Below, one piece after another: positions 1,712-57,410 of a stretch of 64,000 nucleotides of DNA; positions within the stretch are counted from its first letter, which is position 1, and each line of letters begins with the position of its first letter. The notes under the pieces were generated by a model. That model was not told the DNA's origin. It searched no databases and worked only from the letters and a program-made list of their open reading frames with translations. Location: assembly GCA_017525905.1 (NCBI GenBank), contig JAFXSD010000022.1:1-64000 (forward strand), written 5' to 3'. Both the position numbers and the translations under genes were made by a program. Source of the stretch: Elusimicrobiota bacterium. GTDB taxonomy: Bacteria > Elusimicrobiota > Endomicrobiia > Endomicrobiales > Endomicrobiaceae.

Positions 1712-2905
1712 ATGTTACCCAAAGGTTTTTATTGCGGCGGTTTGCATTGCGGTATAGCAAAAAATAAAGATAAAAACGATTTTGCATTGTTTTATTCGGA
1801 TAGCCCTTGCACTGTTGCCGGAATGTTTACGGGAAGTTTGGTTAAGGCTGCACCTGTATTGATTGATATAGACAGAATAAAAAAATATAGATTATTTCAA
1901 GCTATAGTTGCAAATTCCGGATGTGCAAATGCTTGTACGGGTAAACAAGGTAAAAGAGATGCTTTAATGGTCTGTAAAGAAGTTGCTAAATTTTTAAAAA
2001 TTTCAGATACAGATATTTTAGTTGCTTCGACAGGTGTTATAGGAGATTTCTTGCCTGTAGAAAAAATGATAGATGCAGTTCCTAAACTCGTAGAAAATAT
2101 AAAAAAAAGAGATGAACTTTCGGCGGTAACATCTATTATGACAACAGATACTTATCCTAAATATATTTCAAAAAAAATTAAAGTTTCAAAAGGTGAAATA
2201 AAAATTTGGGCATGCACTAAAGGATCGGGAATGATACATCCGAATTTACAAGGTTTGCATGCAACGATGTTATCTTTTATTTTAACGGATGCACAGTTAT
2301 ATCAAAAACAATTACAAAAAGTTACAGAGATTGCGGTTAAACAATCTTATAACTGCATATCTGTAGACGGAGATACATCAACAAATGATACAGTTTTAGT
2401 TTTGGCTAACGGTCAAAGTGAAACCGGAAAACTTGATGCAAAAGATTTGGAAATATTTCAAGAAGCATTGAATGAAGTTACTTTAAAGTTGGCAAAAATG
2501 ATGGCAAGTGACGGTGAAGGTGCAACAAGAATGATAGAAATTTTTGTTAAGAATACTAAAAAACATGAGGATGCCGAAAAAATAGCTTCAACAATTGCAA
2601 CTTCTCCTTTGGTAAAAACAGCATTATTCGGTTCGGATGCAAACTGGGGAAGAATTCTTGCCGCACTCGGAAGAGCGGGAGTAAAAGTAAATCCGGATAA
2701 AGTCGATATCTATATCGGTGATGTTATGACTGCAAAAGACGGTATGGCTGTAAAATTTGATGAAAAAAAAGCTAAAAAAATATTAGAGCAAAAAGAATGT
2801 AAAATTACCATAGATGTGAAGTCGGGCGGAAAACAATGGGCAAGATATTATACTTGCGATTTTTCCTACGATTATGTAAAAATTAACGGCTCTTACAGAA
2901 GCTAA
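1712..2905 (+). CDS. argJ: Bifunctional ornithine acetyltransferase / N-acetylglutamate synthase ArgJ
   Basis: At 397 residues this is the usual ArgJ length. ArgJ moves the acetyl group from N-acetylornithine to glutamate in the cyclic arginine pathway. The precursor self-cleaves before a threonine in an ATML motif, giving alpha and beta chains; here ATML is present with the threonine at residue 185. An oddity is the spacing: the glycine-rich KGSGMIHPN segment is separated from ATML by LQGLH, about four residues more than in typical ArgJ proteins, where PN-M is followed directly by ATML. The C-terminal part contains GSDANWGRILAALGRAG, a conserved beta-chain signature. AAGGAGATATAAAATG is a strong ribosome site fixing the start. 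No other arg genes are in the window. Confidence 0.93.
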   Translation: MLPKGFYCGGLHCGIAKNKDKNDFALFYSDSPCTVAGMFTGSLVKAAPVLIDIDRIKKYRLFQAIVANSGCANACTGKQGKRDALMVCKEVAKFLKISDTDILVASTGVIGDFLPVEKMIDAVPKLVENIKKRDELSAVTSIMTTDTYPKYISKKIKVSKGEIKIWACTKGSGMIHPNLQGLHATMLSFILTDAQLYQKQLQKVTEIAVKQSYNCISVDGDTSTNDTVLVLANGQSETGKLDAKDLEIFQEALNEVTLKLAKMMASDGEGATRMIEIFVKNTKKHEDAEKIASTIATSPLVKTALFGSDANWGRILAALGRAGVKVNPDKVDIYIGDVMTAKDGMAVKFDEKKAKKILEQKECKITIDVKSGGKQWARYYTCDFSYDYVKINGSYRS

Positions 2906-2928
2906 AAAGATAATTTATATTTTATAAT

Positions 2929-2963
2929 AAAAGAACAAGAAGATTTTTCTTCTTGTTCTTTTT
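2929..2963 (+). terminator. Rho-independent terminator after argJ
   Basis: AAAGAACAAGAAG and CTTCTTGTTCTTT form a stem of about 13 bp around a short ATTTTT-type loop and run into a T stretch. It starts 23 nt after the argJ stop and closes the first transcription unit. Confidence 0.85.
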
Positions 2964-3000
2964 GCTTTCTTGTTTATATTTAAAAATAACGAGAAAAATA

Positions 3001-3029
3001 TTGCTTACAATTGTAAAATTTGTTATTAT
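3001..3029 (+). promoter_or_regulatory. Sigma-70-type promoter of the family-2 glycosyltransferase gene
   Basis: TTGCTT at 3001-3006 and TATTAT at 3024-3029 are separated by exactly 17 nt. The site sits just after the argJ terminator and about 57 nt before the next ATG, so it is well placed to start the glycosyltransferase transcript. Confidence 0.5.
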
Positions 3030-3086
3030 GAAAAACAATAAAATTTCGCAGAACGATTTAATTATGTGGGAATATAAAAAATAAAA

Positions 3087-4118
3087 ATGAATAACGCAAA
3101 AGTATCAATAATAATCCCTGTATACAAGGTAGAAAAATATTTAAGACAATGTTTGGACAGTGTGATAAACCAAACATTTAAAGAAATTGAAATAATCTGT
3201 ATAAATGATTGTTCTCCGGATAATTCTTTGCAGATAATAAAAGAATATCAACAAAAAGACAAAAGAATTGTTTTGGTAAACTTAAATAAAAATGTAGGTC
3301 TTGGCTTTGCAAGAAATGAGGGAATGAAAGTTGCAAAGTGTGAATATATAGTATTTGTTGATTCGGATGATTGGGTTTCGGAAACTTTTGTGGAAAGTCT
3401 TTATAAGTTAATAGAGGAAAAAAATGTTGACTTTGTTTCTTTTAACTATATGCATGTGTATGAAAATGATAAAGTTCTTTTTCGTAATAAAGTAAAGTCA
3501 AAATTTTATAATACTATAGTTTCAAGTGATAAAGATAAACAACAAATATTGTCAAATCTTCCGACAGTTACTGTATGGAACAGAATCATTAAGAGAGATT
3601 TCTTGATAAGAAATAATATATGGTTTAGAGTAAATAAGTTGGAAGATGTGTTGTTTACATGGGAAAGTATTATAAAGAGTAACAATTTTTTATTTTCTGA
3701 TAAATATTTATATTATTATCATAGAGTAGTTAGGGAAGATTCACTTATGATGATAATAAATAAAAAACCTTACGGATATCGTTTATACTCATATAAAAAA
3801 CTTAAACAAATGCTTAAAGATATAAATGCTTATGAAATATATAATAAAAATTTTTATTATTATGTTACGTTTGGAATGATGTTATTAATGGAAAAACAAA
3901 AAAGGAAAACCGTATTCTTTGATTTCAAAAAGAATTTTTATGATAATAGTTATAAGTTAGAGTACAGTTATTCACAAAACTTTTTTTTAAAATTAAGACT
4001 TTTTATATTTAATTTTTGTCTGAAAACAAATATAAATTACTATCCGATATGTAAGATATTAAGTTATATAAGAAATAAAAAAATAAATTTGCAATTAAGA
4101 TACAAAGAGCATAAATAA
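3087..4118 (+). CDS. Family-2 (GT-A) glycosyltransferase
   Basis: A 343-residue GT2 protein. The N-terminus VSIIIPVYKVEKYLRQCLDS is the nucleotide-sugar-binding beta strand plus helix of the fold. VDSDDW near residue 90 is the metal-binding DxD-type motif, and the catalytic-loop region follows around VNKLEDVLF (residues 180-205). There are no transmembrane helices, so it is probably cytosolic or membrane-associated through its basic, aromatic C-terminus (residues 250-343, very rich in Lys, Tyr and Phe). A role in polysaccharide or lipopolysaccharide chain building is inferred; donor and acceptor are unknown. No convincing Shine-Dalgarno sequence precedes the ATG. The gene is followed at once by a decayed copy of its own 5' end. 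Confidence 0.8.
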   Translation: MNNAKVSIIIPVYKVEKYLRQCLDSVINQTFKEIEIICINDCSPDNSLQIIKEYQQKDKRIVLVNLNKNVGLGFARNEGMKVAKCEYIVFVDSDDWVSETFVESLYKLIEEKNVDFVSFNYMHVYENDKVLFRNKVKSKFYNTIVSSDKDKQQILSNLPTVTVWNRIIKRDFLIRNNIWFRVNKLEDVLFTWESIIKSNNFLFSDKYLYYYHRVVREDSLMMIINKKPYGYRLYSYKKLKQMLKDINAYEIYNKNFYYYVTFGMMLLMEKQKRKTVFFDFKKNFYDNSYKLEYSYSQNFFLKLRLFIFNFCLKTNINYYPICKILSYIRNKKINLQLRYKEHK

Positions 4119-4120
4119 AT

Positions 4121-4207
4121 ATTTCCATACATAATGTATAAAAATATTTAAAGCAATGTTTGAATAGTGTTTGTAATCAAATATTTGTAGATATTGAAAT
4201 AATTTAA
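4121..4207 (+). pseudogene. Decayed remnant of a second family-2 glycosyltransferase 5' end
   Basis: Reading from 4121 in one frame gives ISIHNV*KYLKQCLNSVCNQ followed by IFVDIEII*. This lines up residue for residue with the N-terminus of the intact upstream glycosyltransferase (IIPVYKVEKYLRQCLDSVINQ, then TFKEIEII). The glutamate codon GAA has become TAA at 4139-4141 and the frame ends at TAA 4205. There is no start codon and the rest of the gene is gone. It therefore looks like the relic of a tandem duplicate or a neighbouring paralogue, wedged between the intact gene and the convergent SPFH gene. Confidence 0.75.
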
Positions 4208-4218
4208 AACTATAGAAA

Positions 4219-5004
4219 TTAATCTTTATCGTTTAACATTATCATTGAGTTAGACTTATCACCTAACATATATTTTGGTAAATGCCCATCCCATTTTTCT
4301 ATCCATTTTAAATTAATAACGGTTTGATTAGAAGAGTCTCTAAGTAATTTCTGTTTTTGAGCTTCGGCTTCGGCAAGTAAAATAACTCTCTTCTTTTCTT
4401 CTTCTGCTTGCATTCTTTGATACTGTATTTTTTTAACTTTCTGTTCTTCTATTTGTTTTTCTTCTACAACTCTGTTAAATTCCGCTGTAAATTGAATATC
4501 TACAATGTTTACATTTTCTATGATTATGTTATATTCTTCAATTTTTTTTCTTAAATTCTCTTCAATTGCAGCCCTTAAATTTTCTCTTTCTACAATAATA
4601 TTTTCAACAGGCAACTTTGAAATTGCTGTTTTAGAAACTTCTTGAATTGCCGGATAAATAACTTTTACAAAATAATCTTTACCGATTTTTATATGAATAT
4701 CGTTTACTTTTTCATAAACCGGTCTAAAATTTACTACTATTTTTGCTCTAACCGTTTGTAAATCTTTTGAAGCTGAATCAGCTTCAATCTCTTGTTTTTG
4801 TGTTTTTACATCGTAGTTTACTACTTGGTGAATAAAAGGAATTTTGAAATATGTTCCTTGAGCAAAACTTTGTGTTTGCCCGGTAATAATATTTATTCTT
4901 ACACCTACAAAACCTACTTCAACGACAAAAAAACTTGAAAGTACTATAAAAGCAATTATTATAATTATAGCAATACCGATTATAAACCCTGTATCTTTTT
5001 TCAT
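4219..5004 (-). CDS. SPFH-domain (prohibitin/stomatin-like) membrane protein
   Basis: A 261-residue protein with one N-terminal transmembrane segment (about residues 7-29), followed by an SPFH/band-7 domain (about 30-190) and a charged coiled-coil-like helix rich in Glu, Lys and Gln (about 185-220). Characteristic prohibitin-type phrases include VGVRINIITG, GTYFKIPFIH and VVEEKQIEEQKV. The family forms large ring or cage assemblies on the membrane and organises lipid domains or membrane proteases. Here it is the last gene of a minus-strand run carrying ceramide-type lipid enzymes, which fits a link with a special membrane composition, but that link is inference. AAGAGG lies 8 nt upstream of the ATG. 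Confidence 0.85.
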   Translation of the reverse strand: MKKDTGFIIGIAIIIIIAFIVLSSFFVVEVGFVGVRINIITGQTQSFAQGTYFKIPFIHQVVNYDVKTQKQEIEADSASKDLQTVRAKIVVNFRPVYEKVNDIHIKIGKDYFVKVIYPAIQEVSKTAISKLPVENIIVERENLRAAIEENLRKKIEEYNIIIENVNIVDIQFTAEFNRVVEEKQIEEQKVKKIQYQRMQAEEEKKRVILLAEAEAQKQKLLRDSSNQTVINLKWIEKWDGHLPKYMLGDKSNSMIMLNDKD

Positions 5005-5065
5005 TTACTTACCTCTTGAATTATAAATTGTTTTTTTATTTTTGACGTTAGCTATATGTTGTACA

Positions 5066-6043
5066 TTATAAATTGTTTTTTAGAGGTTGCCACCATTGTT
5101 TATTGTTTAAATACCATTGAATTGTTTTTTCTATTGCTTGCTCGAATTTATATTGAGGTTGCCACCCCAACTCCTCTTTTATTTTCGTTGCATCTATTGC
5201 ATATCTTCTGTCGTGCCCTAATCTGTCTGCGACATACTTTATTAATGAGTTATCTTTACCTAAATATTTTAAAATAGTATCGGTAATATATTTGTTTGTT
5301 TTTTCGTTGTTTCCGCCGACATTGTAAATTTCACCATCTTTACCTTTATGTAATACTGTATCGATTGCTGAACAATGATCTTCTACAAAAAGCCAATCTC
5401 TGATATTTAAACCGTCACCGTACAAAGGGACTTGTTTATCAGCAAGAGCATTTGTAATAAATAAAGGAATTAATTTTTCAGGAAATTGATAAGGTCCGTA
5501 ATTATTTGAGCATCTTGTAATGTTAATGTTTAAACCGAAAGTATGATGGTATGCCATAACCAATAAATCTGCACTTGCCTTACTTGCGGAATAAGGACTA
5601 TTCGGTGAAAGGGGGGTTTTTTCCGTGAAAAAGCCTGTTTTCCCCAGTGAGCCATACACTTCATCCGTAGATATTTGAAAGAATTTTTCCAGCTTATACT
5701 TCTTTGCAACTTCCAAAAGATTTTGTGTGCCCAAAACATTTGTTTTTACGAATATGTCCGGATTAGTTATGCTTCTGTCAACATGAGATTCCGCAGCAAA
5801 ATTTATTATTACATCTGTTTTGTTTTCGGAAACGATTTTGTCTACCAATTTATTATCTGCAATATCACCTTTAACGAACAAATAGTTAGAATTGTCTTTT
5901 ATGTCGTTTAAACTTTCAATGTTTCCGGCATAAGTTAACAAATCAAGATTAACAATTTTATAATCTTTATATTTGTTTAACATATATCTTACAAAGTTAC
6001 TTCCTATAAAACCTGCACCACCTGTAACCAAAATGTTTTTCAT
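5066..6043 (-). CDS. rfbB: dTDP-glucose 4,6-dehydratase RmlB
   Basis: RmlB converts dTDP-glucose to dTDP-4-keto-6-deoxyglucose, the second step of dTDP-rhamnose synthesis. The protein is an extended short-chain dehydrogenase with the NAD-binding glycine motif TGGAGFIGSNF at residues 7-17, STDEVYG near residue 125 and the catalytic YSASK. The start was placed at the ATG at 6043 (325 residues, MKNILVTGG), because an alternative ATG 24 nt further upstream would overlap the preceding gene and add residues without family support. It begins 4 nt after the GNAT-fold acyltransferase stop and is thus translationally linked to the ceramide-type genes. rmlC and rmlD lie 28 kb away; rmlA is not in the window. 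Confidence 0.92.
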   Translation of the reverse strand: MKNILVTGGAGFIGSNFVRYMLNKYKDYKIVNLDLLTYAGNIESLNDIKDNSNYLFVKGDIADNKLVDKIVSENKTDVIINFAAESHVDRSITNPDIFVKTNVLGTQNLLEVAKKYKLEKFFQISTDEVYGSLGKTGFFTEKTPLSPNSPYSASKASADLLVMAYHHTFGLNINITRCSNNYGPYQFPEKLIPLFITNALADKQVPLYGDGLNIRDWLFVEDHCSAIDTVLHKGKDGEIYNVGGNNEKTNKYITDTILKYLGKDNSLIKYVADRLGHDRRYAIDATKIKEELGWQPQYKFEQAIEKTIQWYLNNKQWWQPLKNNL

Positions 6044-6047
6044 AGCT

Positions 6048-7157
6048 TTAATTCCCGTAAACCGCATATCTTTTATAAATTGATCCGCCCATCATTTCCG
6101 CCGTTCTTTGAGTCATTACGTTATCTTCCAAAATCCAAGAGAGTTCACATTCTTGATATCCGCCTTTAACGGAATTTATAAGGGCCTCTAAAGACATATA
6201 GGCCTCAATGCCTTTATGTCGGTACTCTTTTTTTACACCCATAATCATAAGTCTTAAATCTTTAACTTTTTTTCTGTAATATAAAAATTTAAAAATACCG
6301 AAAGGGAACAACTTGCCATTCATTTTTTTAAATACATAATTGTAGTCGGGAACAGCTATAAGCATACCTATTGTTTTATCTCCATCGCATGCAAGCATTA
6401 TAATATTCGGATCTGCCAAATCTACCAAATCGTTTGCTATAGATTCGAATTCTTCTCTTGTCCAAGGAACAAATCCCCAATTCTTTTCCCAAGCGGAATT
6501 ATATATATCTATTATATCTTCAAGTTCTTTTTTGAAATATCTTTTATCAAAAGTTTTTAAAGTTATGTTAGGATTTCTTTTTTGAACAATTCTTAATGCT
6601 TTGTTAAGTCTTGGCATTCTGTCATCTAATGCTACCGGAATATTATATGCATAAAGTTCCTTGATTTTTTGTAATCCGCATTTTTCTGCCAAATTTAAAT
6701 AATATTTGTGTGTGTAGGGCATCAATATTTTAGGATAACTGTCGAAGCCTTCACATAAAAAACCGACTTCATCGTTTGTCGATGGGTTCATTGGTCCCAT
6801 CATTTTATTTAAGTTGTTTTTTGCCAACCATTGTTTTGCCGCATCAAACAACAATTTTGCAACTTCAACATTATCTATACATTCAAAAAAGCCGAAAAAA
6901 CCTATTTCCGTCTCTTGAAATTTTATATAGTTATAATCGATAATCCCGGCAATTCTTCCTACAATGTTGTTTTTATCGTCATAAGCTAGAAACAATTGCT
7001 TTTTTGCATGTTTCCAATAAGGATTTTTGTTCGATAATAATTTCTTGTTTTCCGAATCTAACTGCGGTATCCAATAAGGTGTGTCTTTATAAATTTTATA
7101 AGGTAGCTTTATAAAGTCATTAATCTTATCAAAACCTATTTCTTTTACGGAAAACAT
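6048..7157 (-). CDS. GNAT-fold N-acyltransferase, candidate bacterial ceramide synthase (bCerS-like)
   Basis: A 369-residue protein with a divergent GNAT fold. The N-terminal half carries YWIPQLDSENKKLL and the motif MMGPMNPSTNDEVGFL (about residues 119-134), followed by MPYTHKYYLNLAEKCGLQK. The C-terminal half has IMGVKKEYRHKGI, an acyl-CoA-binding-like loop (about 305-317). Large two-part GNAT proteins of this kind include the Caulobacter bacterial ceramide synthase, which N-acylates 3-ketosphinganine. Here the gene starts 1 nt after the stop of a serine-palmitoyltransferase-like gene and shares an operon with an epimerase-fold reductase, the same three components. The assignment rests on context and family resemblance. 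The alternative is a generic acyltransferase of the YghO-like family of unknown substrate. Confidence 0.62.
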   Translation of the reverse strand: MFSVKEIGFDKINDFIKLPYKIYKDTPYWIPQLDSENKKLLSNKNPYWKHAKKQLFLAYDDKNNIVGRIAGIIDYNYIKFQETEIGFFGFFECIDNVEVAKLLFDAAKQWLAKNNLNKMMGPMNPSTNDEVGFLCEGFDSYPKILMPYTHKYYLNLAEKCGLQKIKELYAYNIPVALDDRMPRLNKALRIVQKRNPNITLKTFDKRYFKKELEDIIDIYNSAWEKNWGFVPWTREEFESIANDLVDLADPNIIMLACDGDKTIGMLIAVPDYNYVFKKMNGKLFPFGIFKFLYYRKKVKDLRLMIMGVKKEYRHKGIEAYMSLEALINSVKGGYQECELSWILEDNVMTQRTAEMMGGSIYKRYAVYGN

Positions 7158-7158
7158 T

Positions 7159-8487
7159 TTATTTATTCCACAAATTTTTAAGCCATCTTTTTGTAGCGGC
7201 AGCGAATTTATTGTTTGAAAATGAAAAATTCCATCTTTTATTATTTATATTGTTTGAAGATTTTTTCTTCATTCTTGTTCTTGTATTTCCGCCGGGGATA
7301 ATTCCGAGTTGTTTAGCAACTTTTTCGAATTTATCAAGTATAATTTCGAGATGCTCGTCAGTATGTGTTGCCATGTAACTTGTTCTTATTATTGCTTGTC
7401 CTTCAGGAACGGCGGGACTAACTATAGGTGATGCAAAAACACCTTCTTCGAACAACATTGCACACATTTGAAATGCTTTCATGTCTTCACCTACGGTTAT
7501 AGGTATAATCGGAGATTCTGATGTTCTTGTATCAAAACCGAGTGATTGGAAACCTTCTTTCATTTTGTTTGTGTTTTCCCAAAGCTTGGCTCTTCTTTCC
7601 GGCTCATCCTGTAAAATATCAAGAGCAACATCAATTGCACCTACACAAGCGGGAGGTAATGCTGCAGTAAAAATTAAAGATCTTGCCGTATGTTTAATAT
7701 ATGAAATAACTTCACTTCTGCTGGCTATAAAACCGCCTATTGAAGCGAGTGATTTTGAAGCTGTTGCCATTAAAACATCCACTTCCGGTTCCATATTAAA
7801 ATATTCACCTGTTCCTTTACCGTTTTTACCGAGAACTCCGAGGGAGTGAGCTTCATCTACATAAACTCTTGCACCGTATTTTTTTGCAAGTGCCGAAATT
7901 TCGGGAAACTTTGCAATATCTCCTTCCATACTGAAAATTCCGTCTACAACTATTAAAGCGGAAGTCCCTTTAGCTTGAACTTTTATTAATTGCCTTTCCA
8001 AATCACCCATATCATTATGTCTAAATCTTAACATTTCTCCACCGAAAGAAAGTCTGCAACCATCTATAATTGAGGCATGATCTAATTTATCGGTAATAAC
8101 AAACTCGCCTTTACCGACCAAAGAAGAAATTGCTCCTAAATTTGAATGATGACCTGTTGTAAAAAGTATTGCGGATTCTTTGCCTACGAATTTTGCAAAT
8201 TTTCTTTCAACTTTTTCATGTAAATCATTCGTTCCGTTCACGAATCTTGAACCAGTACAAGATGTCCCGTATTGCTTTGCAGCCAAAACAGAACCTTCAA
8301 TAACCTTAGGATGATCTGCAAGTCCTAAATAATTATTCGAGCACAAAACAATCTTTTCTTTGCCGTCAATTTTAACAACCGGGCTTTGAACTGTTTCTAC
8401 TCTTTTAAAGTAAGGATATATACCTACATTTTGTAAATCTCTCGGTGCCGTAAATTTCGTGCATTTTTCAAAAATATCGTTTGACAT
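7159..8487 (-). CDS. spt: Serine palmitoyltransferase-like PLP-dependent alpha-oxoamine synthase
   Basis: This alpha-oxoamine synthase (442 residues) belongs to the family that condenses an amino acid with an acyl-CoA; serine palmitoyltransferase makes 3-ketosphinganine. The N-terminal phrase GIYPYFKRVET is typical of bacterial serine palmitoyltransferases rather than of BioF or Kbl. Also visible are NNYLGL, GSRFVNGT, DKLDHASIIDG (pyridine-stacking His), DEAHSLGVLG (Asp to pyridine N, His) and ATASKSLASIGGF with the PLP lysine at residue 245. After the catalytic core there is an unusual tail of about 40 residues, very basic and ending FAAATKRWLKNLWNK, which could be an amphipathic membrane anchor. 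GGAGAG precedes the ATG. Glycine C-acetyltransferase is the main alternative, but no threonine dehydrogenase is nearby. Confidence 0.75.
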   Translation of the reverse strand: MSNDIFEKCTKFTAPRDLQNVGIYPYFKRVETVQSPVVKIDGKEKIVLCSNNYLGLADHPKVIEGSVLAAKQYGTSCTGSRFVNGTNDLHEKVERKFAKFVGKESAILFTTGHHSNLGAISSLVGKGEFVITDKLDHASIIDGCRLSFGGEMLRFRHNDMGDLERQLIKVQAKGTSALIVVDGIFSMEGDIAKFPEISALAKKYGARVYVDEAHSLGVLGKNGKGTGEYFNMEPEVDVLMATASKSLASIGGFIASRSEVISYIKHTARSLIFTAALPPACVGAIDVALDILQDEPERRAKLWENTNKMKEGFQSLGFDTRTSESPIIPITVGEDMKAFQMCAMLFEEGVFASPIVSPAVPEGQAIIRTSYMATHTDEHLEIILDKFEKVAKQLGIIPGGNTRTRMKKKSSNNINNKRWNFSFSNNKFAAATKRWLKNLWNK

Positions 8488-8513
8488 AAAAACTCTCCAC
8501 TGTGTAAACTATA

Positions 8514-9527
8514 TTAAAAATACTTGTTACTTAAATACCAATTGTATGTTATTTTTGCTCCGTTTTCAAGTTTTACAAACTCAAAATCGGTATCTTTTAT
8601 TATATTTGAATTGTCGGCTATCCAATAAGTTTGTAACATTTCAACAATTTTTTCTTTACTTAACACTTGCGGCTTTTTCGTGATTTTTGCAACAAGTTCA
8701 TAAAAAAAAGCAACCGATTTAAAAATAAAATCGAACAACATAATCGGTATTGTTTTTATGTTGTTTGTATCTGCTATTGTTGCTGCAACGGATTCCCAAG
8801 TGTAAATATTGCCGTCACAAAGATAATATGTTTTGTTGTCAGTATTTTCGTTGTTTATTACATTTGATATGACTTTTGCTATATCTTTTACGAAAACAAG
8901 CTGAATGAATTTTTTATTATAAGTGTTTAATTTTAAATGATGTTTAACCAAATTAAAGAAAATAAAAATATCTTTGTCTCTCGGTCCGTAAACAGATGCC
9001 GGTCTTATTATTGTATAAGGAATAATTCCGTTCAACTTTTTTATTTCTTGTTCGGCAAGCAATTTGCTTTTACCGTAATTCGAAACCGGATTTTCTTTTT
9101 CCGTTAGTTGTTTCGGTACTTCCGTAGAGCTTGGTCCCATTGCCGCTTGAGAAGATATATAAATAAATTTCTTAATATTTTTTTTGTTTTTAATTGCTGT
9201 TTGAACAAGATTTCTTGTTCCTTCTACATTAGTTTTATAATATTCGTCCCAATTTAATGCTCTTACAACACCGGCACAATGAACAACAATTTCAACTTCG
9301 GAAAGCAATTTTGATAATTGTTCTTCATCGTTTAAAGAACAATATTCGAATTGTATAGGGTAATCTTTTATCCACTTTAAATTAGATGATTTTCGAACTG
9401 TTGCAATAATTTCATGATTTTTTGAAATAAGTTCTTCTACTATGTGGCTACCTACAAAACCTGTTGCACCGGTAACCAAAATCTTTTTCGGAGAGAAAGA
9501 TTTTGTGTGTGAAATATTACTTTTCAT
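8514..9527 (-). CDS. Epimerase-fold NAD(P)-dependent reductase, candidate ceramide/ketosphinganine reductase (CerR-like)
   Basis: A 337-residue extended short-chain dehydrogenase with the cofactor motif TGATGFVGSHI (about residues 20-30), VVHCAG, and the catalytic YGKSK tetrad element. Such proteins are usually labelled NAD-dependent epimerase/dehydratase. In Caulobacter a protein of this fold (CerR) reduces the 3-oxo group in ceramide synthesis, and this gene heads an operon with serine-palmitoyltransferase-like and ceramide-synthase-like genes. The second of two adjacent ATG codons (9527) was chosen because AAGGAG then sits 5 nt upstream; the first (9530) is only 2 nt from it. A sugar-nucleotide or sterol-type dehydrogenase role is the alternative. 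Two palindromic direct repeats lie about 80 nt upstream. Confidence 0.65.
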   Translation of the reverse strand: MKSNISHTKSFSPKKILVTGATGFVGSHIVEELISKNHEIIATVRKSSNLKWIKDYPIQFEYCSLNDEEQLSKLLSEVEIVVHCAGVVRALNWDEYYKTNVEGTRNLVQTAIKNKKNIKKFIYISSQAAMGPSSTEVPKQLTEKENPVSNYGKSKLLAEQEIKKLNGIIPYTIIRPASVYGPRDKDIFIFFNLVKHHLKLNTYNKKFIQLVFVKDIAKVISNVINNENTDNKTYYLCDGNIYTWESVAATIADTNNIKTIPIMLFDFIFKSVAFFYELVAKITKKPQVLSKEKIVEMLQTYWIADNSNIIKDTDFEFVKLENGAKITYNWYLSNKYF

Positions 9528-9607
9528 CATTTCTCCTTATGGATATTTTCAAACATTTTAATATTTTTATCCAATAAATTTATAATGAAAATTACTTTGC
9601 ATTTTAT

Positions 9608-35017: not shown

Positions 35018-35560
35018 ATGGAGAAGAGCCTTTTTTTGTTACCATCTAAAAAGATAATTTCTTTAATATTGTCAGTTATGACAATATTAAATGTTTTTAG
35101 TGTCGTTCTTATATACAATGCCGAAAGTATAGAAGAGTCAAAGAACTATACTACAGATACAATTGCAAAATATTGTAATATCGCAGTAGATATTCCGATG
35201 AAACTTATGAGTCATTTTTTCAAGGATGATGTTTCAAATAGTATTGGAATGCTTGCACCGATAAAAAATTCAGACAATGGTAATAAAAAACAGGAAAAAG
35301 ATGGGTTGAACGATCTTTTTCAGTATGCGGTTGCCAATGATAACATATCTTCGGTTAATTTTGTCAAAAGTTTATTTTTCCCGGTTTTATTGCCTTTTTA
35401 TAATGTGGAAATAAGTAAGCATAATTGCAATATTGATGTTATAGTTTTGGAAATATTACTGTTTATTATATTATTCAATGGTTCTATTATGCTTGCCAGA
35501 GGAGATACGGAAGATATTATTAATAATACAAATATAGAAAGAAAAGTCCGTCTTGCATAA
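35018..35560 (+). CDS. Membrane protein of unknown function preceding the giant-protein gene
   Basis: The 180-residue product is not recognised. It has a hydrophobic N-terminal helix (about residues 12-33), a polar middle (34-115) that would be outside the cytoplasm, and a second hydrophobic helix (about 141-160), ending in a short basic tail. No cysteine or catalytic motif stands out. TACAAT (35004-35009) ends 8 nt before the ATG and there is no Shine-Dalgarno sequence, so a leaderless message is possible. Its stop codon lies in the loop of a terminator-like hairpin, after which the 2803-residue protein starts 37 nt later. The arrangement suggests an accessory or regulatory partner of the giant gene. 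Confidence 0.6.
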   Translation: MEKSLFLLPSKKIISLILSVMTILNVFSVVLIYNAESIEESKNYTTDTIAKYCNIAVDIPMKLMSHFFKDDVSNSIGMLAPIKNSDNGNKKQEKDGLNDLFQYAVANDNISSVNFVKSLFFPVLLPFYNVEISKHNCNIDVIVLEILLFIILFNGSIMLARGDTEDIINNTNIERKVRLA

Positions 35561-35585
35561 TGAAATACAAGGCGGATTTTATTTT
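35542..35585 (+). terminator. Terminator-like hairpin (possible attenuator) between the 180-residue gene and the giant gene
   Basis: AAAAGTCCGTCTTG pairs with CAAGGCGGATTTT (12 or more pairs with two G-U), loop CATAATGAAATA, then TTTTATTTTG. The stop codon of the upstream gene (35558-35560) is in the loop, so translating ribosomes would interfere with folding. This could set the ratio of the two gene products. Confidence 0.6.
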
Positions 35586-35597
35586 GTGGAGAAAACT

Positions 35598-38500
35598 ATG
35601 TTAAATAAAAAATTAAAGGAATTTTGGATAAAAAAAATTACAAGTGTGACAATTGCAACCTGTTTGATAATAACAAGCTTGCAAGGTTTGACATTTTCTA
35701 TGTCGGTACCTGTTAATACAGTACCTTTGTTGCCTCAAATTAGTACGAACATTATTCCATTTAATATCGGAAGAGTTACTGAAACAACCTATAACGGAGA
35801 CGGACAAGTACTTGTATTGATACAAGATTTACACAGTCATAAACAAACACAAGAAAATATAAACAGTATATTAAAAGTGTTGGATAACAAGTACGGAATA
35901 AAAAATATTTGGCTTGAAGGAGCAAGCGGACATCTTGATACAAGTTGGATATCCAAAATTCAAGATACAACAGAAAGGGAACAAGTTGTAAAGGTACTTT
36001 TAGAAAAAGGAATGCTTACCGGAGCAGAAATGTTTTCTATAAAATCCGGAAAAACAGATATATTAAAAGGAATAGAAAATAAAGAAGTATATTTAAAAAA
36101 CTTTAACAGATTGAATGAAATATATAGTAAGAAAGTTGAAATAGAAGAATACCTCCCGCAAATAAAAGCAATTCTTAAAGCAAAGACAGAAGGTTATTTT
36201 TCGATAAATAACAGAAAGATAAATAGTCTTCAGGAAAAGAATAAAGAAGGTAAAATAAGAGCTGACAAGTACTTTGCATATATTTTAAGAGCAATGAAAA
36301 AAGCCGGATTAAAGTTGTCTGATTACGAACAAATTTCCAAGTATGTATATGTTATGGCAAAACAAAAGAGAATAAATTTTAAAAGAGCAAATAAAGAAAT
36401 CAGAACAATAATAACAGAATTAAAAGAATTATCAACTTATCAACAGTATAGAGAGCTTTTAAACAAAGTAAATAACAAAGAGACCGAGACCGAATTTTAT
36501 TCGGAAATAAAGAAGTTTGCCGAACAGAAAGGAATACTTAATAAATATAAAGAAGCGGAGAAATTTTTTGAATATTTGACGTATAACGAGATGTTAAATC
36601 CGATAGAACTTGTTGAGCAGGAAGAAGAACTTATAGACGATATAGAGACAAGTTTTGCACAAAACGGATACGAGAAAGAAGTATTATTTTTGAAGAAATA
36701 TTTTAGGTTGATAGAAAGTTACTTAATGAACAAGATTACGGCGGACGAATACAGATATTTTGAAAACAACAGAGAAAGGTTTAAGCTGTTATGGACAAAA
36801 TACGTAGATATTGACGGTATAATAAACATAGATGAATATTTTAGTTTGTTTGACGACTTTTATAAAGACAATGTAGAAAGGAACAGATGTTTTATAGAAA
36901 ATATTACCGGTAAAAAGCCGGCAAAAGAAAAAGAAGCGATAGTTATAAAAGCCGGAGCGGAATATAATGCAAAAGCGATAGAAGAGTTAAGTAAAACGAA
37001 AACCGGGATAGATGTTGTTATAACCGGCGGATTTCACACGGGAGGCTTAAGCAGACTATTTGAAGAAGAGAAAATCAATTATATAGTAATAACACCGAAT
37101 GTAACGGAAGAGACGGTAACGAGTGAAAAATTATATGCAAATATGTTTGCGGAAGAATATGAGATAGTAAAAGAAAAATTTGCAAATATGCCGATATCGA
37201 ATATCATTTCTTTATTGGATGATACAAATAAAATAGAAAAAATAGAAGCAATTGAAAATGTCGTAAAAATAATAACAGTTGATGGTAAAGAAATATTTGT
37301 CGGTCGTGATGGTGTAATAACTGGAAAAGATGTTCAAAAAGAATCTTCTTTACAAACAAAATTAAGTGAGAAACAGGCAAAAACTGCTGCAGAAGCTTTT
37401 ATAAGTTTACAGGAATATTTAAAAAGAGAACGAGAAAATAAGAGAAGAGAAACAGCAGGAATTGCACCTTTAGATAATTCTAATTTGAGAGAAAAAACTC
37501 AAGAATTAATAAGTGGAATAACAGATAATAGTTTGAAATATGCTTTTAGTGAGAAAATTTCTAATTCTGCTCCTATTTTACAGACGAATGGAACCATCGA
37601 CCGGTTGGAAAGAGTTGCAAAATTTTTCGGTTTAAGAAACCCGAAAGAATTCAGAAAAAATCCGTTCGGAGTAGCTTTGGGTGCATTTTTGGAAACATTT
37701 AGCTTATGGAGAAAAGATTTTGCCGAACAGCATGAAAGTTGGACGATCTTGCAAGAAAAAGCACTAAAAAACATAAAAGAACAAAGTATATTAGCAGGAA
37801 TGGATGGAATAAGACTCGGTATGATACTGGGATTAGCATATGGAATATTATTTTCTAATTCTTTGTTTGGAGGATTAGTAGTGATTGTTAGTGCTGCAAC
37901 AATATGTAGTACCATTTCTTTTCTAGTAACGGAATGGGTACTCCATTATAAACATAATATAAATCATACCAACTATATGTTGCAAACCGGTGGCACTTCG
38001 GATAAGAAAACCGATGCGACAGGTATAAAAGATATTTTACCGATAAAAACAAAGAAACCTTTTAACATTCCCGGAATTATAAAAGAATTAAAGAGACGAG
38101 GAATAGAAAATAAAGAGCTGTTTAATTTTTTAGTTAAATTTAGGGAAGATAAATATATCGGGTTAATTAACGGCTTACTTAAAGAAAAAAATCTGCTGGA
38201 AGCTTTTGAACAAAAATTGGAGGGGGAATATGAACAAATACTCAATGAAGAAGATTTTTATATAACTTATGAGAAGGCAGAAAAAATCTATGAAGAAGAA
38301 ATGCATTTATTAAGAGCAACAGACAGAGCGGAATATGAGAGAATTAGTTCTTTTATAGGAAAGCCCGCAATAGAAGAATTTAAAAATTATATTAACAACA
38401 GAAAATCTACATTACTAAAACAGTGGAAAAGAATGTTAAGAGAAGATAAGTATACAAATGCCGAGAGGGTTTTAATAGCAAGAGGAATAAAACAATATTT

Positions 38501-41500
38501 AAGAAAAGCAAAAACATCCGCAATTCCCGTAGAATATATAGAGACAGCATTCGACAAATTTATAGAAAACTTTAAGAATACACAGATAGAAGAAGTAGAA
38601 CGATTCAACATATATGAACAATATTTAAAATGTATAACTGAACAGATAACTGCAGGAGGTAATAATCCGATAGTAAAAGAAGTGAGCTATAACTATAACG
38701 GAACAGAGGTACAAGGGAAATGGATCCGGATAAAAGGGAAAAAGAGCATTGAGGCAGAAGGTAAAGGAGATTTAGAATTAAATAAACAAATATTATCTGC
38801 AGTATCATCTGAGGAATGGTGTACAAGAGGAAGAGGAGGAGAATATATAGTATTAGAATGGCATGGCAGTGATTTTTATGTATTTATAGAGGATGGTCAA
38901 ATAAGATCTACATTAGGATTTGTTCCTGCGGAAGATTTAGAAGATTTAAAAACAGATCCGTGGTATTACGGATTGTTTGAGCAGGGAAATGGGCAGAACA
39001 ATATAGTTCCTGAAATATATGATGAAGCGGTGAAGGAGTTACAAAAAGAATTAGAATCAGGCAAATATCAGGATGAAGACGGATATAAAACATTACAAGA
39101 TATAGTAAATAAGAAGAGAGAAAAAAGAGAGAAGCAGAAAAAATTTTTTGAAAAGACAAAGGATTTAACGGATTATACGGATGAGACAATAAGGCAGATG
39201 TTTGTGGAAGCCTTTTCTGTAGTGATAACACAAGATGAGTATGGGAATTGGAATACCGTTCATGAAGTAACTGATTCGATGTTGGATGAAATGGCTGAAA
39301 TCGATATATCTATAGTAGAAAAATTTTTAAAGACAATAAAGAATGTAGAATTATCGGTGAGTATTTTAAGTGCTAATTATGCCAAATATATAGAAGATTT
39401 AAATGTCGGACAAGATTTAAAATTGGGAGTTAGATCTCTTAAAAAAGGAGTAAGTCTCAAAGCCGGTGGAGATGTAGATTTCCGAAATTTAATTGAAGTC
39501 GGGGAAGGAGTAACTGTCAGTGCCGGTGAAACTTTGATTTTAAGTAAAGTAACCGAAATAGGAGAAGGAGTAAGTCTCAGTGCCGGTGAAAATTTGTATT
39601 TAGATAAAGTAACTGAAATAGGAGAAAGAATAAGTCTTAGTGCCGGCAGAACTTTGAGTTTAGGATTAGCAAAACTGACAAAAGAAGCTACAGATAAAAT
39701 AAATGAATTTAAATTTAATTCGTTATCATTGTTGTCTGCAGAAAGTGTTGAGAACGGAGTAGAGTTAAATGTTGATGGAAATTTGGAACTGAGAAATGTA
39801 ACCGAAATAGGAGAAGGAGTAACTCTCAGCGCCGGTAACAATTTATTTTTAAATAATGTAAGTGCTTTGCCTAAGAAAGTAAATCTTATTGCCTATGAGA
39901 ATTTGTATTTAGAGAGATTAGCCGAAATAGAAGAAGAAGTAAGTCTTATAACCGGTAACCTCTTGCTTTTATATAACTTAACAGCTTTACCTGAAAATAC
40001 GGATAGTATTAAGTTATATTTTGATGATATAGAGTTATACTCGTATGATGAAGAACTTGAACAACAACTAATAGAAATAAGAGACAGAACAAAGAGAGAA
40101 TTAACTACCGAAGAAGAAATAGATAACCTTATACATGAATTGGAAGTTGCTGAGAAAAATTATAATCAAAACAAAACAGAAAAAAATAAGAAAAAATTAG
40201 AAGCAGCTTTTATCAATATAAAATTGGATGTAAAAAATATGTCTTTAGATACATTGTACGATATTGTGGAAAGAATATTTACAATAATGCAAAGATATTA
40301 CAATATGAGTCCTGAAGGATATTTTGAACAGCTAAACATGGTAAAAAGATTTTTAAAGGACAAAAAATATGATATTAAATCACAAACCGAAAAATATATG
40401 ATTGATGATAATCTGGACGTAGATAGAATGCAGTCAAAATTCCCGAATATGATAGTCTCCGCACAATCTATACCGGATAGTTACGGTGATAAAGATATAA
40501 TTGAAAATTTATATGTTGTCTTTAGTTTAATGTTGTCAGGATTAGGATCGAGATTGAACAGAACAGACTTTTTAAAAGCTGTATTCGTATTAGATAAAAA
40601 ACTTTTAGAGACAAAAAAGATACAAAATGAGTTTTTGAAAGAAAAAACAGAAAAAGAATTGGAACGAGCTGTAAAAACTTTAGATTTTTTAAGATACAGT
40701 GAAGAATATGAATCGTATGTGAGACAATATGCTGAAGAATCACAAACAGAAGGGTTAATTGATGACGAAGGGAATATTCTTAATCCCAATCAAAAAACAA
40801 AATCAATTGATTTAAAATTAAGAGTACAAACAAGTGAAGGTTGGAGAATGAAATCTTTGGCACAAATGATACTTGATTCTTTGTTAATAAAGAGTCAAGA
40901 AATCGGAGATAATTTTGCCGTAAATATACTTACGGATAACCAATCTATTCCCGCAATAAATGTTTTACTTGACAGTATAATAGAAGAAGGAGCTTTCGCA
41001 GGTAAGAAATACAGAGAAGTTTTAATGAACAAAAAAATAATTCAAACAACATTAGGTAGGAATATTACCGGCATTAGTTTACACAGAATGCATCCTTCAG
41101 TTCAATACGATGAAAATACGGGAATTTTTAATTTTTATACTGAACAATATCCTTTGGGCCATTCGAGATATGCTGTTGAATTGGGAGAACAATTGATGAG
41201 TGAAACTTCGTCTAATAAAGAAGAGGAGATAAATGTTGTAACAAATAGTGACAACTGGAAAGCAGGTAATTTATTTAACAAAATAATCGGATGGGTTGCC
41301 AAAACGAAAACACCCATAGCGATATTGGTAACAAAGAAAGGAACGAATCAGGGTGGTATTCCAATGTTAGTTTCTGAAACGATTAATGGAGAGGAATTCT
41401 TGTTTTATAAAATTATAGAATCCGCACAAGCGGAAGAAAACGATGAACTTAAGCAAAAATTCAATAATTCGCCCAATGCATTATATAATACCAATATGAT

Positions 41501-46910: not shown

Positions 46911-48365
46911 GTGCTAAAAGAAATTAATGCGGTTATAAAACTTTCTCAAGAGACAAATACCGATGTTTATGTTGTTGGAGGTTATTTAAGGGATTTCTTG
47001 TTAAAAAAGAAGTCTTTGGATATAGATTTGGCCGTATCTAAAAAGTCAGAAGTTTTTGCAAAAAAATTGGCAAAAAATATAAACGGAAAATGTTTTAAAT
47101 TACATGACGACCTGCAAACTTACAGAGTAGCCGTTTTTAATAATCCGGATTTGGAATATATAGATATTTCTCTTATTCAAGGTAAAGATATAAAAGATGA
47201 TTTAACGAGAAGAGATTTTACAATTAATGCATTAGCCTTAAAAATTGAGTGCTTTGATAATATTAAAAAAAATATAATCGATTATTTCGGTGGAATAAAA
47301 GATTTAAAAAAGAAAGAAATAAATGCTGTCTCAAAAACGATTTTTAATGATGATCCTTTGAGAATGTTAAGAGCCTTCAGATTTTCAAGTGAATATAGTT
47401 TTAAAATTTCAAAAGAAACTTTATCTTTAATAAAAAAGTATTCTTCAAAAATTACTAATGTTGCCGGTGAAAGAATAAAGAACGAAATTTTTAGAATATT
47501 AAACAATAAAAAATCTTCAAAATATATTGCAATGATTGATGACTGCGGATTATTGGAAAAAACATTTCCCGTTATAACAAAAATGAAAAAGTCCGCAAAA
47601 AATTTTTATTATCATCCCAAGGGATTATTTCAACATTGTTTTCAAACTTATGAAGCATTGGAAAAAATTTTAATTAAAACAGATAAATATTTCCAAAAAT
47701 CCGTCAATGAATTAGATAAACATTTAAGTGAAAGTTTTTCTGAGTATGTAAATAAAAAAAATCTATTAAAATTTATTGCTCTTTTCCACGATTGTGCAAA
47801 ACCCGAATGTGCCAAAAGAATGGATAATAAAATGAGATTTTTGGGCCATGAAGCATTGGGTGCTAAAAAAACGGCACAAATAATGAAAGAGTTAAAAATG
47901 AGCAATAAGGAAATATCTTATGCAAAAGCAATAATATCAGAACATATGAGACCTTCAAATTTGGCAAAATCCGATGTTATAACAAACAGAGCACAAATGA
48001 GACTTTTTAGAGATATAAAAGAAAATACTCCGGATCTTTTGATATTGGCAATGTCTGATTGGCATTCTTATCAAACTTTAAAAGTGAAAGTATATTCAAA
48101 GAAAGTTTTAAAACAGCAGGAAAAAGCTGTTGCTAAACTGATATTCAATTATTTTGAATTCATCAATAATAAGCCTAAAGATAAAATTGTCGATGGTAAT
48201 GTTTTAATGAAAGAGTTTCATCTTAAGCCCGGGAAAATAATAGGTGATTTGTTGTTGCTAATAAACAATGCTTATGAAGAGGGAAGAATAAAAGATAAGA
48301 AACAAGCGTTGAAATATGCAAAATCTCAATTGACAGTATTAAAGAAAAAACATAAAATTATATAG
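46911..48365 (+). CDS. Class II tRNA nucleotidyltransferase/poly(A)-polymerase family protein without flexible loop, candidate CC-adding enzyme
   Basis: A 484-residue protein with an N-terminal nucleotidyltransferase head: VVGGYLRDFLL, the metal-binding DID in KKSLDIDLAV, RRDFTINALAL, DDPLRMLRAFRF and GERI. A C-terminal HD domain follows (FHDCAKPE, GHEA, SEHMR). Between the DxD strand and RRDFT there are only about a dozen residues after the last beta strand (ISLIQGKDIKDDLT). The R-x-E-x-Y...LEQD flexible loop needed for A addition, present in the second paralogue at 56 kb, is missing, as in known CC-adding enzymes. The GTG start has GGAG 9 nt upstream. It ends 40 nt before tRNA-Gly. Poly(A) polymerase is the alternative. 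Confidence 0.8.
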   Translation: MLKEINAVIKLSQETNTDVYVVGGYLRDFLLKKKSLDIDLAVSKKSEVFAKKLAKNINGKCFKLHDDLQTYRVAVFNNPDLEYIDISLIQGKDIKDDLTRRDFTINALALKIECFDNIKKNIIDYFGGIKDLKKKEINAVSKTIFNDDPLRMLRAFRFSSEYSFKISKETLSLIKKYSSKITNVAGERIKNEIFRILNNKKSSKYIAMIDDCGLLEKTFPVITKMKKSAKNFYYHPKGLFQHCFQTYEALEKILIKTDKYFQKSVNELDKHLSESFSEYVNKKNLLKFIALFHDCAKPECAKRMDNKMRFLGHEALGAKKTAQIMKELKMSNKEISYAKAIISEHMRPSNLAKSDVITNRAQMRLFRDIKENTPDLLILAMSDWHSYQTLKVKVYSKKVLKQQEKAVAKLIFNYFEFINNKPKDKIVDGNVLMKEFHLKPGKIIGDLLLLINNAYEEGRIKDKKQALKYAKSQLTVLKKKHKII

Positions 48366-56057: not shown

Positions 56058-57410
56058 ATGAATTTTTCAAATATTCCCAAAACATATCAATCTGTTATTG
56101 AAAAACTTATAACAATAGCTAAAAGTAACAATTTTGTTATTTATGCTGTCGGTGGCTTTGTGAGAGACATTATCTTGAACAGAGAACCTAACGATTTAGA
56201 TATTATGGTTGATGGTGAAAAAGCCGGCATCGAGTTTTCTAAGATTGTTGCTGAAAAATTGAATATTCATCCTCCGATTATTTTTGAAAAATTCGGAACA
56301 GCCAAACTTCTTATAGAAGACAAAGAAATAGAATTTATAATGCCGAGAAAAGAATATTATGATGAAAATTCAAGAAATCCAGAAACTGAAATAGGAACAT
56401 TGGAACAAGATGCTTTAAGACGAGATTTTACGGTTAATGCATTATTTTTATGTTTAAATAATTTCACACTTCTAGATTTAACTCAAAAAGGAATAAAAGA
56501 TATAGAAAATAAAATAATAAGAGTCACCGATGAATCTGCATCCGATATCATTTTTGAACAAGATCCGTTAAGAATATTGAGAGCCGTTCGACAATCTTTT
56601 CAATTAAAATTCAAAATAGAACCTAAAACTTATCAAAGTATGAAAAACAAATCCGGTCGAATATCAATAGTTTCCGGTGAAAGAATATCAGAAGAAATAA
56701 ATAAAATTTTATTGTTGGATAAACCTTCAGAAGCCTTTTCTATGTTAGATGATATTGGTTTATTGGATATTTTATTTCCGGAATTAAAACAAGCACAAGG
56801 AGTATCTCAACCTAAACCATATCATACAAAAGACGTGTATGGACACACGATGGATGTAGTGGATAATATTAAATCCGATTTGCTTTTAAGAGTATCGGCA
56901 TTGTTTCACGATATAGGTAAGCCTGAAACTAGAACGGAAACAGGCGGAAAAATATCATTTATCAATCATGAAACAACAAGCTCTATAACAGCAAAACAAA
57001 TTCTGTTAAGATTAAAATATCCTTCGGATTTTATAAAAAAAGTTTGTTTCCTGATACAAAATCATATGTATCCTAAAATGTATACAAGTCAATGGAAAGA
57101 TTCTTCTGTTAGAAAATTCGCATATAAAATCGGAGATGATATTGAAAATATAAAATTGTTAAATTATGCCGACAGTAATAATTTTAACGGAGAGCTTTTT
57201 GATAGAGTTGAACAATTAAGAAATAGAGATATGTTGATGCCAAAAGAAGATTTACTTGACGGTAATGAATTGATGAAAAAATTTAACAGACCTGCCGGCA
57301 AGTGGATAAGCCAAGCAAAAGAACACATAAGGAATTTACAATCGGATAATCCTAAAATAACAAAAGAAGAAGCTCTTAAAAAGTTAAAAATTATATTGAA
57401 AATACAATAA
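56058..57410 (+). CDS. cca: Class II tRNA nucleotidyltransferase with flexible loop, candidate A-adding or CCA-adding enzyme
   Basis: A 450-residue paralogue of the 46.9-kb gene. It shows AVGGFVRDIIL, the DLD pair in EPNDLDIMV, EFIMPRKEYYDENSRNP leading to LEQDALRRDFTVNAL, DPLRILRAVR and GERISEEI, then an HD domain (LFHDIGKPE, INHE, QNHMYP). The R-x-E-x-Y to LEQD segment is the flexible loop that positions the last A, and it is intact here. With the loop-less paralogue, the pair fits a split CC-adding plus A-adding system as in Aquifex or Deinococcus. A single CCA-adding enzyme plus a poly(A) polymerase is the alternative. Four of five tRNAs in this window need CCA addition. Confidence 0.87.
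   Translation: MNFSNIPKTYQSVIEKLITIAKSNNFVIYAVGGFVRDIILNREPNDLDIMVDGEKAGIEFSKIVAEKLNIHPPIIFEKFGTAKLLIEDKEIEFIMPRKEYYDENSRNPETEIGTLEQDALRRDFTVNALFLCLNNFTLLDLTQKGIKDIENKIIRVTDESASDIIFEQDPLRILRAVRQSFQLKFKIEPKTYQSMKNKSGRISIVSGERISEEINKILLLDKPSEAFSMLDDIGLLDILFPELKQAQGVSQPKPYHTKDVYGHTMDVVDNIKSDLLLRVSALFHDIGKPETRTETGGKISFINHETTSSITAKQILLRLKYPSDFIKKVCFLIQNHMYPKMYTSQWKDSSVRKFAYKIGDDIENIKLLNYADSNNFNGELFDRVEQLRNRDMLMPKEDLLDGNELMKKFNRPAGKWISQAKEHIRNLQSDNPKITKEEALKKLKIILKIQ

What the first reader, a model, noticed from the sequence alone, without database searches (positions are those of the whole stretch)
6048..9527. Three-gene ceramide-type sphingolipid module
An epimerase-fold reductase, a serine-palmitoyltransferase-like enzyme (GIYPYF signature, PLP Lys245) and a large GNAT-fold acyltransferase are consecutive and tightly spaced. 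These are the three enzyme types of the Caulobacter bacterial ceramide pathway (CerR, Spt, bCerS). In this lineage (tentatively Elusimicrobiota) sphingolipids are, as far as I know, not established.
Basis: partly seen in the sequence, partly recalled or inferred. Interest (0 to 1): 0.75.

Follow-up and report, generated by a model that had tools for sequence, protein, structure and literature searches.

The report
Ceramide-backbone genes in Elusimicrobiota
Three neighbouring genes in this little-studied bacterium are clear relatives of the known bacterial enzymes that build ceramides (the sphingolipid backbone), and most genomes sampled from its phylum carry the core pair side by side, so these bacteria probably make sphingolipids, which I could not find reported for this phylum.

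Summary
On the minus strand, an extended SDR (8514-9530), a serine-palmitoyltransferase-like enzyme (7159-8487) and a tandem-GNAT protein (6048-7157) lie 26 bp and 1 bp apart. The synthase falls with known Spts and away from Kbl/BioF (98/96 and 100/99 support; AU test p=0.001 against grouping with Kbl/BioF). The GNAT protein is the only match in the whole genome to E. coli YghO, the published orthologue of Caulobacter ceramide synthase CC_1154. The SDR is the only match to the E. coli CerR orthologue. The Spt-GNAT pair is adjacent in 133 of 137 sampled genomes of the phylum, which a named relative identifies as Elusimicrobiota. The same module occurs in many other phyla, so the kind is known. 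New are the wide presence in Elusimicrobiota, a conserved tryptophan/basic C-terminal tail on the synthase, and Spt loss between intact reductase and acyltransferase genes in two small-genome relatives. The amino-acid substrate (serine rather than alanine or glycine), the head group and the lipid itself are not shown. The dTDP-glucose dehydratase gene just downstream is a local neighbour, not part of the conserved module.

The parts
8514..9530 (-). Extended SDR, CerR-like 3-keto reductase
   Evidence: Epimerase Pfam 128 bits; only whole-genome match to E. coli CerR orthologue, 1.6e-30, 32%; GATGFVG NAD motif and SS...YxxSK conserved with E. coli and Sphingomonas CerR
7159..8487 (-). Serine-palmitoyltransferase-like alpha-oxoamine synthase (Spt)
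   Evidence: Best NCBIfam model SerpalmtaseCFB 508.8 bits, below its 640 cut-off, next model 405; PDB best Sphingobacterium SPT 389 bits; tree and AU test; His137, Asp211, His214, Lys245, Arg368 conserved
7162..7293 (-). C-terminal extension of the Spt (about residues 399-442) ending in a basic, tryptophan-containing predicted helix (KRWLKNLWNK)
   Evidence: Tail present in many Elusimicrobiota Spts, absent from reference Spts and from the Spts of other phyla examined; AF2 helix 425-440 at low confidence; moderately amphipathic
6048..7157 (-). Tandem-GNAT acyltransferase, bacterial ceramide synthase (bCerS/YghO/CC_1154) family
   Evidence: tblastn to E. coli YghO 33% over 98%; reverse search single hit 1.1e-58; AF2 model and fold search; tree
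5066..6067 (-). RmlB (dTDP-glucose 4,6-dehydratase), downstream neighbour, probably co-transcribed but not a conserved part of the module
   Evidence: TIGR01181 518 bits, over cut-off; beside the GNAT gene in the related genus (L110, 85%) but not in the other regions examined

Best explanation
The three genes form a ceramide-backbone module. Spt condenses an amino acid, most likely L-serine, with a long-chain acyl-CoA (no AcpR/AasR partner was found) to give a 3-keto long-chain base. The tandem-GNAT enzyme N-acylates it, and the SDR reduces the 3-keto group, before or after acylation, giving a dihydroceramide-type lipid for the envelope. Shown here: homology, family placement, conserved catalytic residues, operon-like layout and conserved synteny. 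Inferred: the reactions, their order, the amino acid, the acyl donor and the lipid. The basic tryptophan helix at the Spt C-terminus may hold the soluble enzyme at the membrane or at the acyltransferase (inference).
For: Spt separates from Kbl/BioF (98/96; 100/99; AU p=0.00115). Best sequence and structure match is Sphingobacterium SPT (389 bits; Z 52.6, 45% identity, though Z is tied with Kbl). E. coli YghO and CerR each hit only the window gene in the whole genome. PMC9386255 names yghO and its neighbours as the E. coli set, and L060 shows them together. The pair is adjacent in 133 of 137 genomes of the phylum; SDR, Spt and GNAT genes also lie together in Rubrobacter, Streptomyces and Aureispira, and Spt lies within 1.5 kb of the GNAT gene in 50 of 80 named loci from many phyla. 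No AasR orthologue.
Against: No lipid data. NCBIfam SPT cut-off is not met (508.8 of 640). Cys49 and Ser353 differ from the Gly and Asn of all seven reference Spts; Cys49 is what E. coli and C. necator Kbl carry. The branching order inside the Spt-like clade is unresolved. CerR-family placement of the SDR is by unique reciprocal match, not by a resolved tree, and several families of the phylum lack the SDR next to Spt. No head-group enzyme is in the cluster.
Confidence: 0.86

Rival explanations
1. Same module, but the synthase uses alanine or glycine (or another amino acid), giving 1-deoxy- or otherwise altered ceramides rather than classical ceramides.
For: Cys49 and Ser353 depart from the residues shared by all seven reference Spts; 1-deoxysphingolipids were found in euxinic Black Sea water and Spt is said to be able to use alanine (PMC11334938).
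Against: Most other Spt-distinguishing positions follow Spts (Pro25, Tyr26, Thr75, Asn84, Thr111, Glu188, Ala275, Ala359, Ser370). The positions that set the amino acid were not established here.
Confidence: 0.2
2. The synthase is a glycine C-acetyltransferase (Kbl) or BioF and the neighbours are unrelated.
For: Kbl and BioF models score 337-395 and 385 bits; structure Z-scores are nearly tied; the LCSNNYLG motif resembles Kbl.
Against: Tree and AU test reject it; conserved pairing with a YghO-type acyltransferase across the phylum; no biotin or threonine dehydrogenase genes beside it.
Confidence: 0.03
3. Sulfonolipid (capnine) pathway: the synthase uses cysteate, and the acyltransferase and reductase make an N-acyl-capnine.
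For: Same three reaction types; SulA is an alpha-oxoamine synthase and matches the window protein (250 bits).
Against: Match to SPT is much better (389 bits; 45% vs 31% identity in structure alignment). Cysteate synthase was not searched for.
Confidence: 0.04
4. The SDR is not the ceramide reductase but a sugar or hopanoid-type epimerase that happens to precede spt.
For: HpnA and GalE models match below cut-off (114 and 79 bits); the SDR is not next to Spt in several families; tree of SDRs poorly resolved.
Against: Only genome match to E. coli CerR; SDR-Spt adjacency conserved in 8 of the 15 families whose regions were read and in other phyla.
Confidence: 0.12

Closest known systems
Caulobacter/E. 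coli spt-cerR-bcerS cluster (CC_1162/CC_1164/CC_1154; ECD_02854/02852/yghO)
   Same: Homologues of all three enzyme types; GNAT and SDR are single reciprocal genome hits
   Different: No AcpR/AasR partner found; no LptFG or head-group genes alongside; different gene order; Spt only about 38% identical to the E. coli one; longer SDR loop
Bacteroidota SPT (Sphingobacterium multivorum 3a2b; NCBIfam NF047600)
   Same: Closest characterised synthase, 45% identity over 392 residues, YPYF-type motif, catalytic residues
   Different: Below the model cut-off; C-terminal extension of about 45 residues; Cys49 and Ser353; in the Bacteroidales loci read here spt and the GNAT gene are not together
Three-gene modules of other phyla (Rubrobacter, Streptomyces, Desulfuromonadaceae, Zixiibacteriota, Nitrospirota and others)
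   Same: SDR, Spt and GNAT side by side
   Different: No tryptophan tail on Spt in those printed; GNAT 33-48% identical

Membership tests
Serine palmitoyltransferase / Spt-like clade | Phylogenetic placement with known Spts, apart from Kbl and BioF | tested here: met
   98/96, 100/99, AU p=0.00115
Serine palmitoyltransferase / Spt-like clade | PLP lysine and alpha-oxoamine synthase catalytic residues | tested here: met
   His137, Asp211, His214, Lys245, Arg368 aligned with S. paucimobilis H159, D231, H234, K265, R390
NCBIfam NF047600 SPT equivalog (Bacteroidota type) | Score over curated cut-off 640 | tested here: not met
   508.8 bits; module-linked Spts of Aureispira and Rubrobacter also fall below it, so it is not filed under this equivalog
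Serine palmitoyltransferase / Spt-like clade | Uses L-serine and long-chain acyl thioester | not testable with these tools
   needs enzyme assay
Bacterial ceramide synthase (bCerS, CC_1154/YghO) | Full-length homology to a published orthologue, with no better candidate in the genome | tested here: met
   YghO single genome hit 1.1e-58; 33% over 98%; PMC9386255
Bacterial ceramide synthase (bCerS, CC_1154/YghO) | GNAT fold | tested here: met
   AF2 pLDDT 91.7; top match tandem GNAT MAB_4324, E 1.3e-15
Bacterial ceramide synthase (bCerS, CC_1154/YghO) | N-acylates a long-chain base | not testable with these tools
   needs assay
Ceramide reductase CerR (CC_1164 type) | SDR homologous to published CerR, NAD motif and catalytic Tyr-Lys | tested here: met
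   E. coli CerR single genome hit 1.6e-30; motifs
Ceramide reductase CerR (CC_1164 type) | Groups with known CerRs in a tree | tested here: inconclusive
   SDR tree mostly unresolved
Ceramide reductase CerR (CC_1164 type) | Periplasmic location | not testable with these tools
   Shown for Caulobacter CerR (PMC11087976)
Kbl / BioF | Groups with Kbl or BioF | tested here: not met
SulA cysteate acyltransferase | Closer to SulA than to SPT | tested here: inconclusive
   250 vs 389 bits and 31% vs 45% in structure alignment point away, but SulA was not in the tree

The most novel reading that the evidence does not exclude
Sphingolipid synthesis is an ancestral and widespread trait of Elusimicrobiota, with a phylum-specific membrane- or partner-docking tail on Spt. 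Some small-genome members have dropped Spt while keeping the acyltransferase and reductase, so they may acylate long-chain bases taken from their hosts.
Probability: 0.2. Interest if true: 0.65.

Novelty: new member of a known kind. Interest (0 to 1): 0.42.

Why it matters
Bacterial sphingolipids influence envelope stability and host interaction. A core spt-cerS pair in most sampled Elusimicrobiota genomes makes a whole phylum, with many gut members, a predicted source of these lipids. Isolates exist (Elusimicrobium minutum, Endomicrobium proavitum), so the prediction is directly testable. No paper I could search links the phylum to sphingolipids, but the supplement of PMC11334938 (38 phyla) could not be read and may already list it.

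Tried and rejected
Kbl/BioF identity (rejected by tree and AU test). A rhodobacterial, ACP-dependent version (no AasR orthologue, best 1.9e-6 over a short stretch; no AcpR in the window). RmlB as part of the module (adjacency only in the window's genus and one relative). Upstream biotin carboxylase and cytidylyltransferase-like genes next to spt in family f13 (genes of like size precede it in f16) as pathway parts: read as ordinary neighbours. A DAGK-type ceramide kinase: no PF00781 in the genome; PF01066 has two copies, which do not point to a ceramide head group. SDR tree as a test of CerR membership: unresolved. Structure Z-scores cannot separate SPT from Kbl. Stankeviciute 2022 is not held. 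Literature searches for Elusimicrobiota or Endomicrobia with sphingolipid, ceramide or serine palmitoyltransferase gave nothing relevant.

Full report
What is there. The minus strand carries SDR (9530-8514), Spt-like (8487-7159) and GNAT (7157-6048) ORFs, in that order of transcription, with gaps of 26 bp and 1 bp; an RmlB gene starts at or just after the GNAT stop. Pfam gives Epimerase, Aminotran_1_2 and a weak Acetyltransf_1. NCBIfam ranks the synthase first with the Bacteroidota serine palmitoyltransferase model (508.8 bits, cut-off 640), 103 bits ahead of the next. RmlB is an ordinary dTDP-glucose 4,6-dehydratase (518 bits, cut-off 365).

The synthase. In the PDB its best sequence match is Sphingobacterium SPT (389 bits), ahead of the Thermus enzyme (312), C. 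necator Kbl (281) and SulA (250). In a 37-row tree all Elusimicrobiota Spts, the Bacteroidota, Sphingomonas and E. coli Spts and module-linked relatives are separated from Kbl and BioF with 98/96 support. With 52 rows the Kbl/BioF set stands alone at 100/99, and holding the window protein and two relatives with Kbl/BioF is rejected (delta lnL 58, AU p=0.00115). The branching inside the Spt-like clade is unresolved. The catalytic His, Asp, His, Lys245 and Arg are present; most Spt-distinguishing positions agree, but Cys49 and Ser353 do not, so serine as substrate is inferred.

The GNAT protein. tblastn against plasmids finds full-length relatives, including E. coli YghO at 33%. PMC9386255 lists yghO (ECD_02850) with Caulobacter CC_1154 as the acyl-CoA N-acyltransferase gene required for dihydroceramide synthesis. 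The E. coli locus carries spt, acp, epimerase and fatty acyl-AMP ligase genes beside yghO. YghO used as a query has one hit in the window's whole genome: this protein, 1.1e-58. The AlphaFold model (pLDDT 91.7) is a tandem GNAT; its best match is M. abscessus MAB_4324.

The SDR. The E. coli CerR orthologue has one hit in the genome, this SDR, 1.6e-30. It keeps GxTGFxG and SS...YxxSK. A tree of SDRs does not resolve the group. So the reductase role rests on unique reciprocity and synteny.

Lineage and conservation. Locus L131, from a record titled Elusimicrobiota bacterium isolate Cf509_bin71, lies in a genome (G198) whose hit is at the same place with the same score (C242:427-1500, 462.6 bits) as G107, a genome of the window's own family. 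That fixes the phylum as Elusimicrobiota; class Endomicrobia is my inference. GNAT matches occur in 161 of 198 sampled genomes and Spt-type matches at 1e-60 or better in 183 (the weaker of these may be other alpha-oxoamine synthases). Among genomes whose places I transcribed for both genes from those tables, 133 of 137 have the genes adjacent; in the other four the two hits lie on different contigs. The SDR is adjacent in families f1, f3-f7, f9 and f10, not in f2, f8 and f12-f16.

Mechanism. By analogy with Caulobacter, Spt and the acyltransferase would act in the cytoplasm and the reductase after them (PMC11087976); the order is disputed (PMC11324152). No AasR orthologue was found in this genome, so acyl-CoA is the likelier donor, as stated for Bacteroidetes Spts in PMC11324152. 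The head group is unknown: there is no DAGK-type kinase.

A new detail. The window Spt and those of most families of the phylum carry about 40 extra C-terminal residues, basic, ending in a helix such as KRWIKNLW. It is absent from the reference Spts and from the Spts of other phyla printed; it occurs there only in L142 (an Elusimicrobia record) and L146 (an unnamed bacterium that clusters with it). It is also absent from some Elusimicrobiota. AlphaFold draws a helix at 425-440 with low confidence; amphipathicity is moderate. Membrane or partner docking is a guess.

Erosion. In G001 and G017 (small genomes of the same family, 99% complete) the SDR and GNAT genes are intact and neighbours, but no Spt was detected between them; in G123 both survive only as frameshifted remnants.

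Verdict. Real, correctly read, a new phylum-wide occurrence of a known pathway rather than a new kind of system. PMC11334938 already reports Spt-like genes in 38 phyla; its text does not mention Elusimicrobiota and its supplement was not readable here.

Noticed in passing
L211 (G001) 2898-5692; L212 (G017) 3791-6109; L213 (G123) 4758-6959: Spt gene not detected between intact SDR and GNAT genes in two small-genome relatives; in a third both are frameshifted remnants. May reflect loss of synthesis or use of host-derived long-chain bases.
   Followed up: partly
window 7162-7293, and Spt C-termini of L093-L102, L106, L110, L142, L146: Conserved basic, tryptophan-containing C-terminal tail on Spt, seen only in Elusimicrobiota and one unnamed relative that clusters with them.
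   Followed up: partly
L107 4280-5479 and L108 4631-5764 (G028); also G030, G070, G177: A second copy of the ceramide-synthase-type GNAT gene elsewhere in the genome, without Spt beside it in the region read (L108).
   Followed up: no
L115 6007-7221 (Priestia megaterium plasmid): Spt-like synthase 48% identical to the window's on a Bacillota plasmid, with a methyltransferase and an acyltransferase but no YghO-type GNAT gene annotated nearby.
   Followed up: no
window 35553-44009 (+): ORF of 2818 aa with no Pfam match and internal repeats of 60-base register near 39438-39984.
   Followed up: partly
window 57673-62130 (+): 1485-aa protein made almost wholly of TPR repeats.
   Followed up: no
window 46911-48365 and 56058-57410 (+): Two different poly(A) polymerase/CCA-adding-type proteins with HD domains about 8 kb apart, perhaps split CC- and A-adding enzymes.
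   Followed up: no
window 4219-5004 (-): SPFH/Band 7 protein just downstream of RmlB on the same strand; such proteins often sit in membrane lipid domains, so its nearness to lipid genes may or may not mean something.
   Followed up: no
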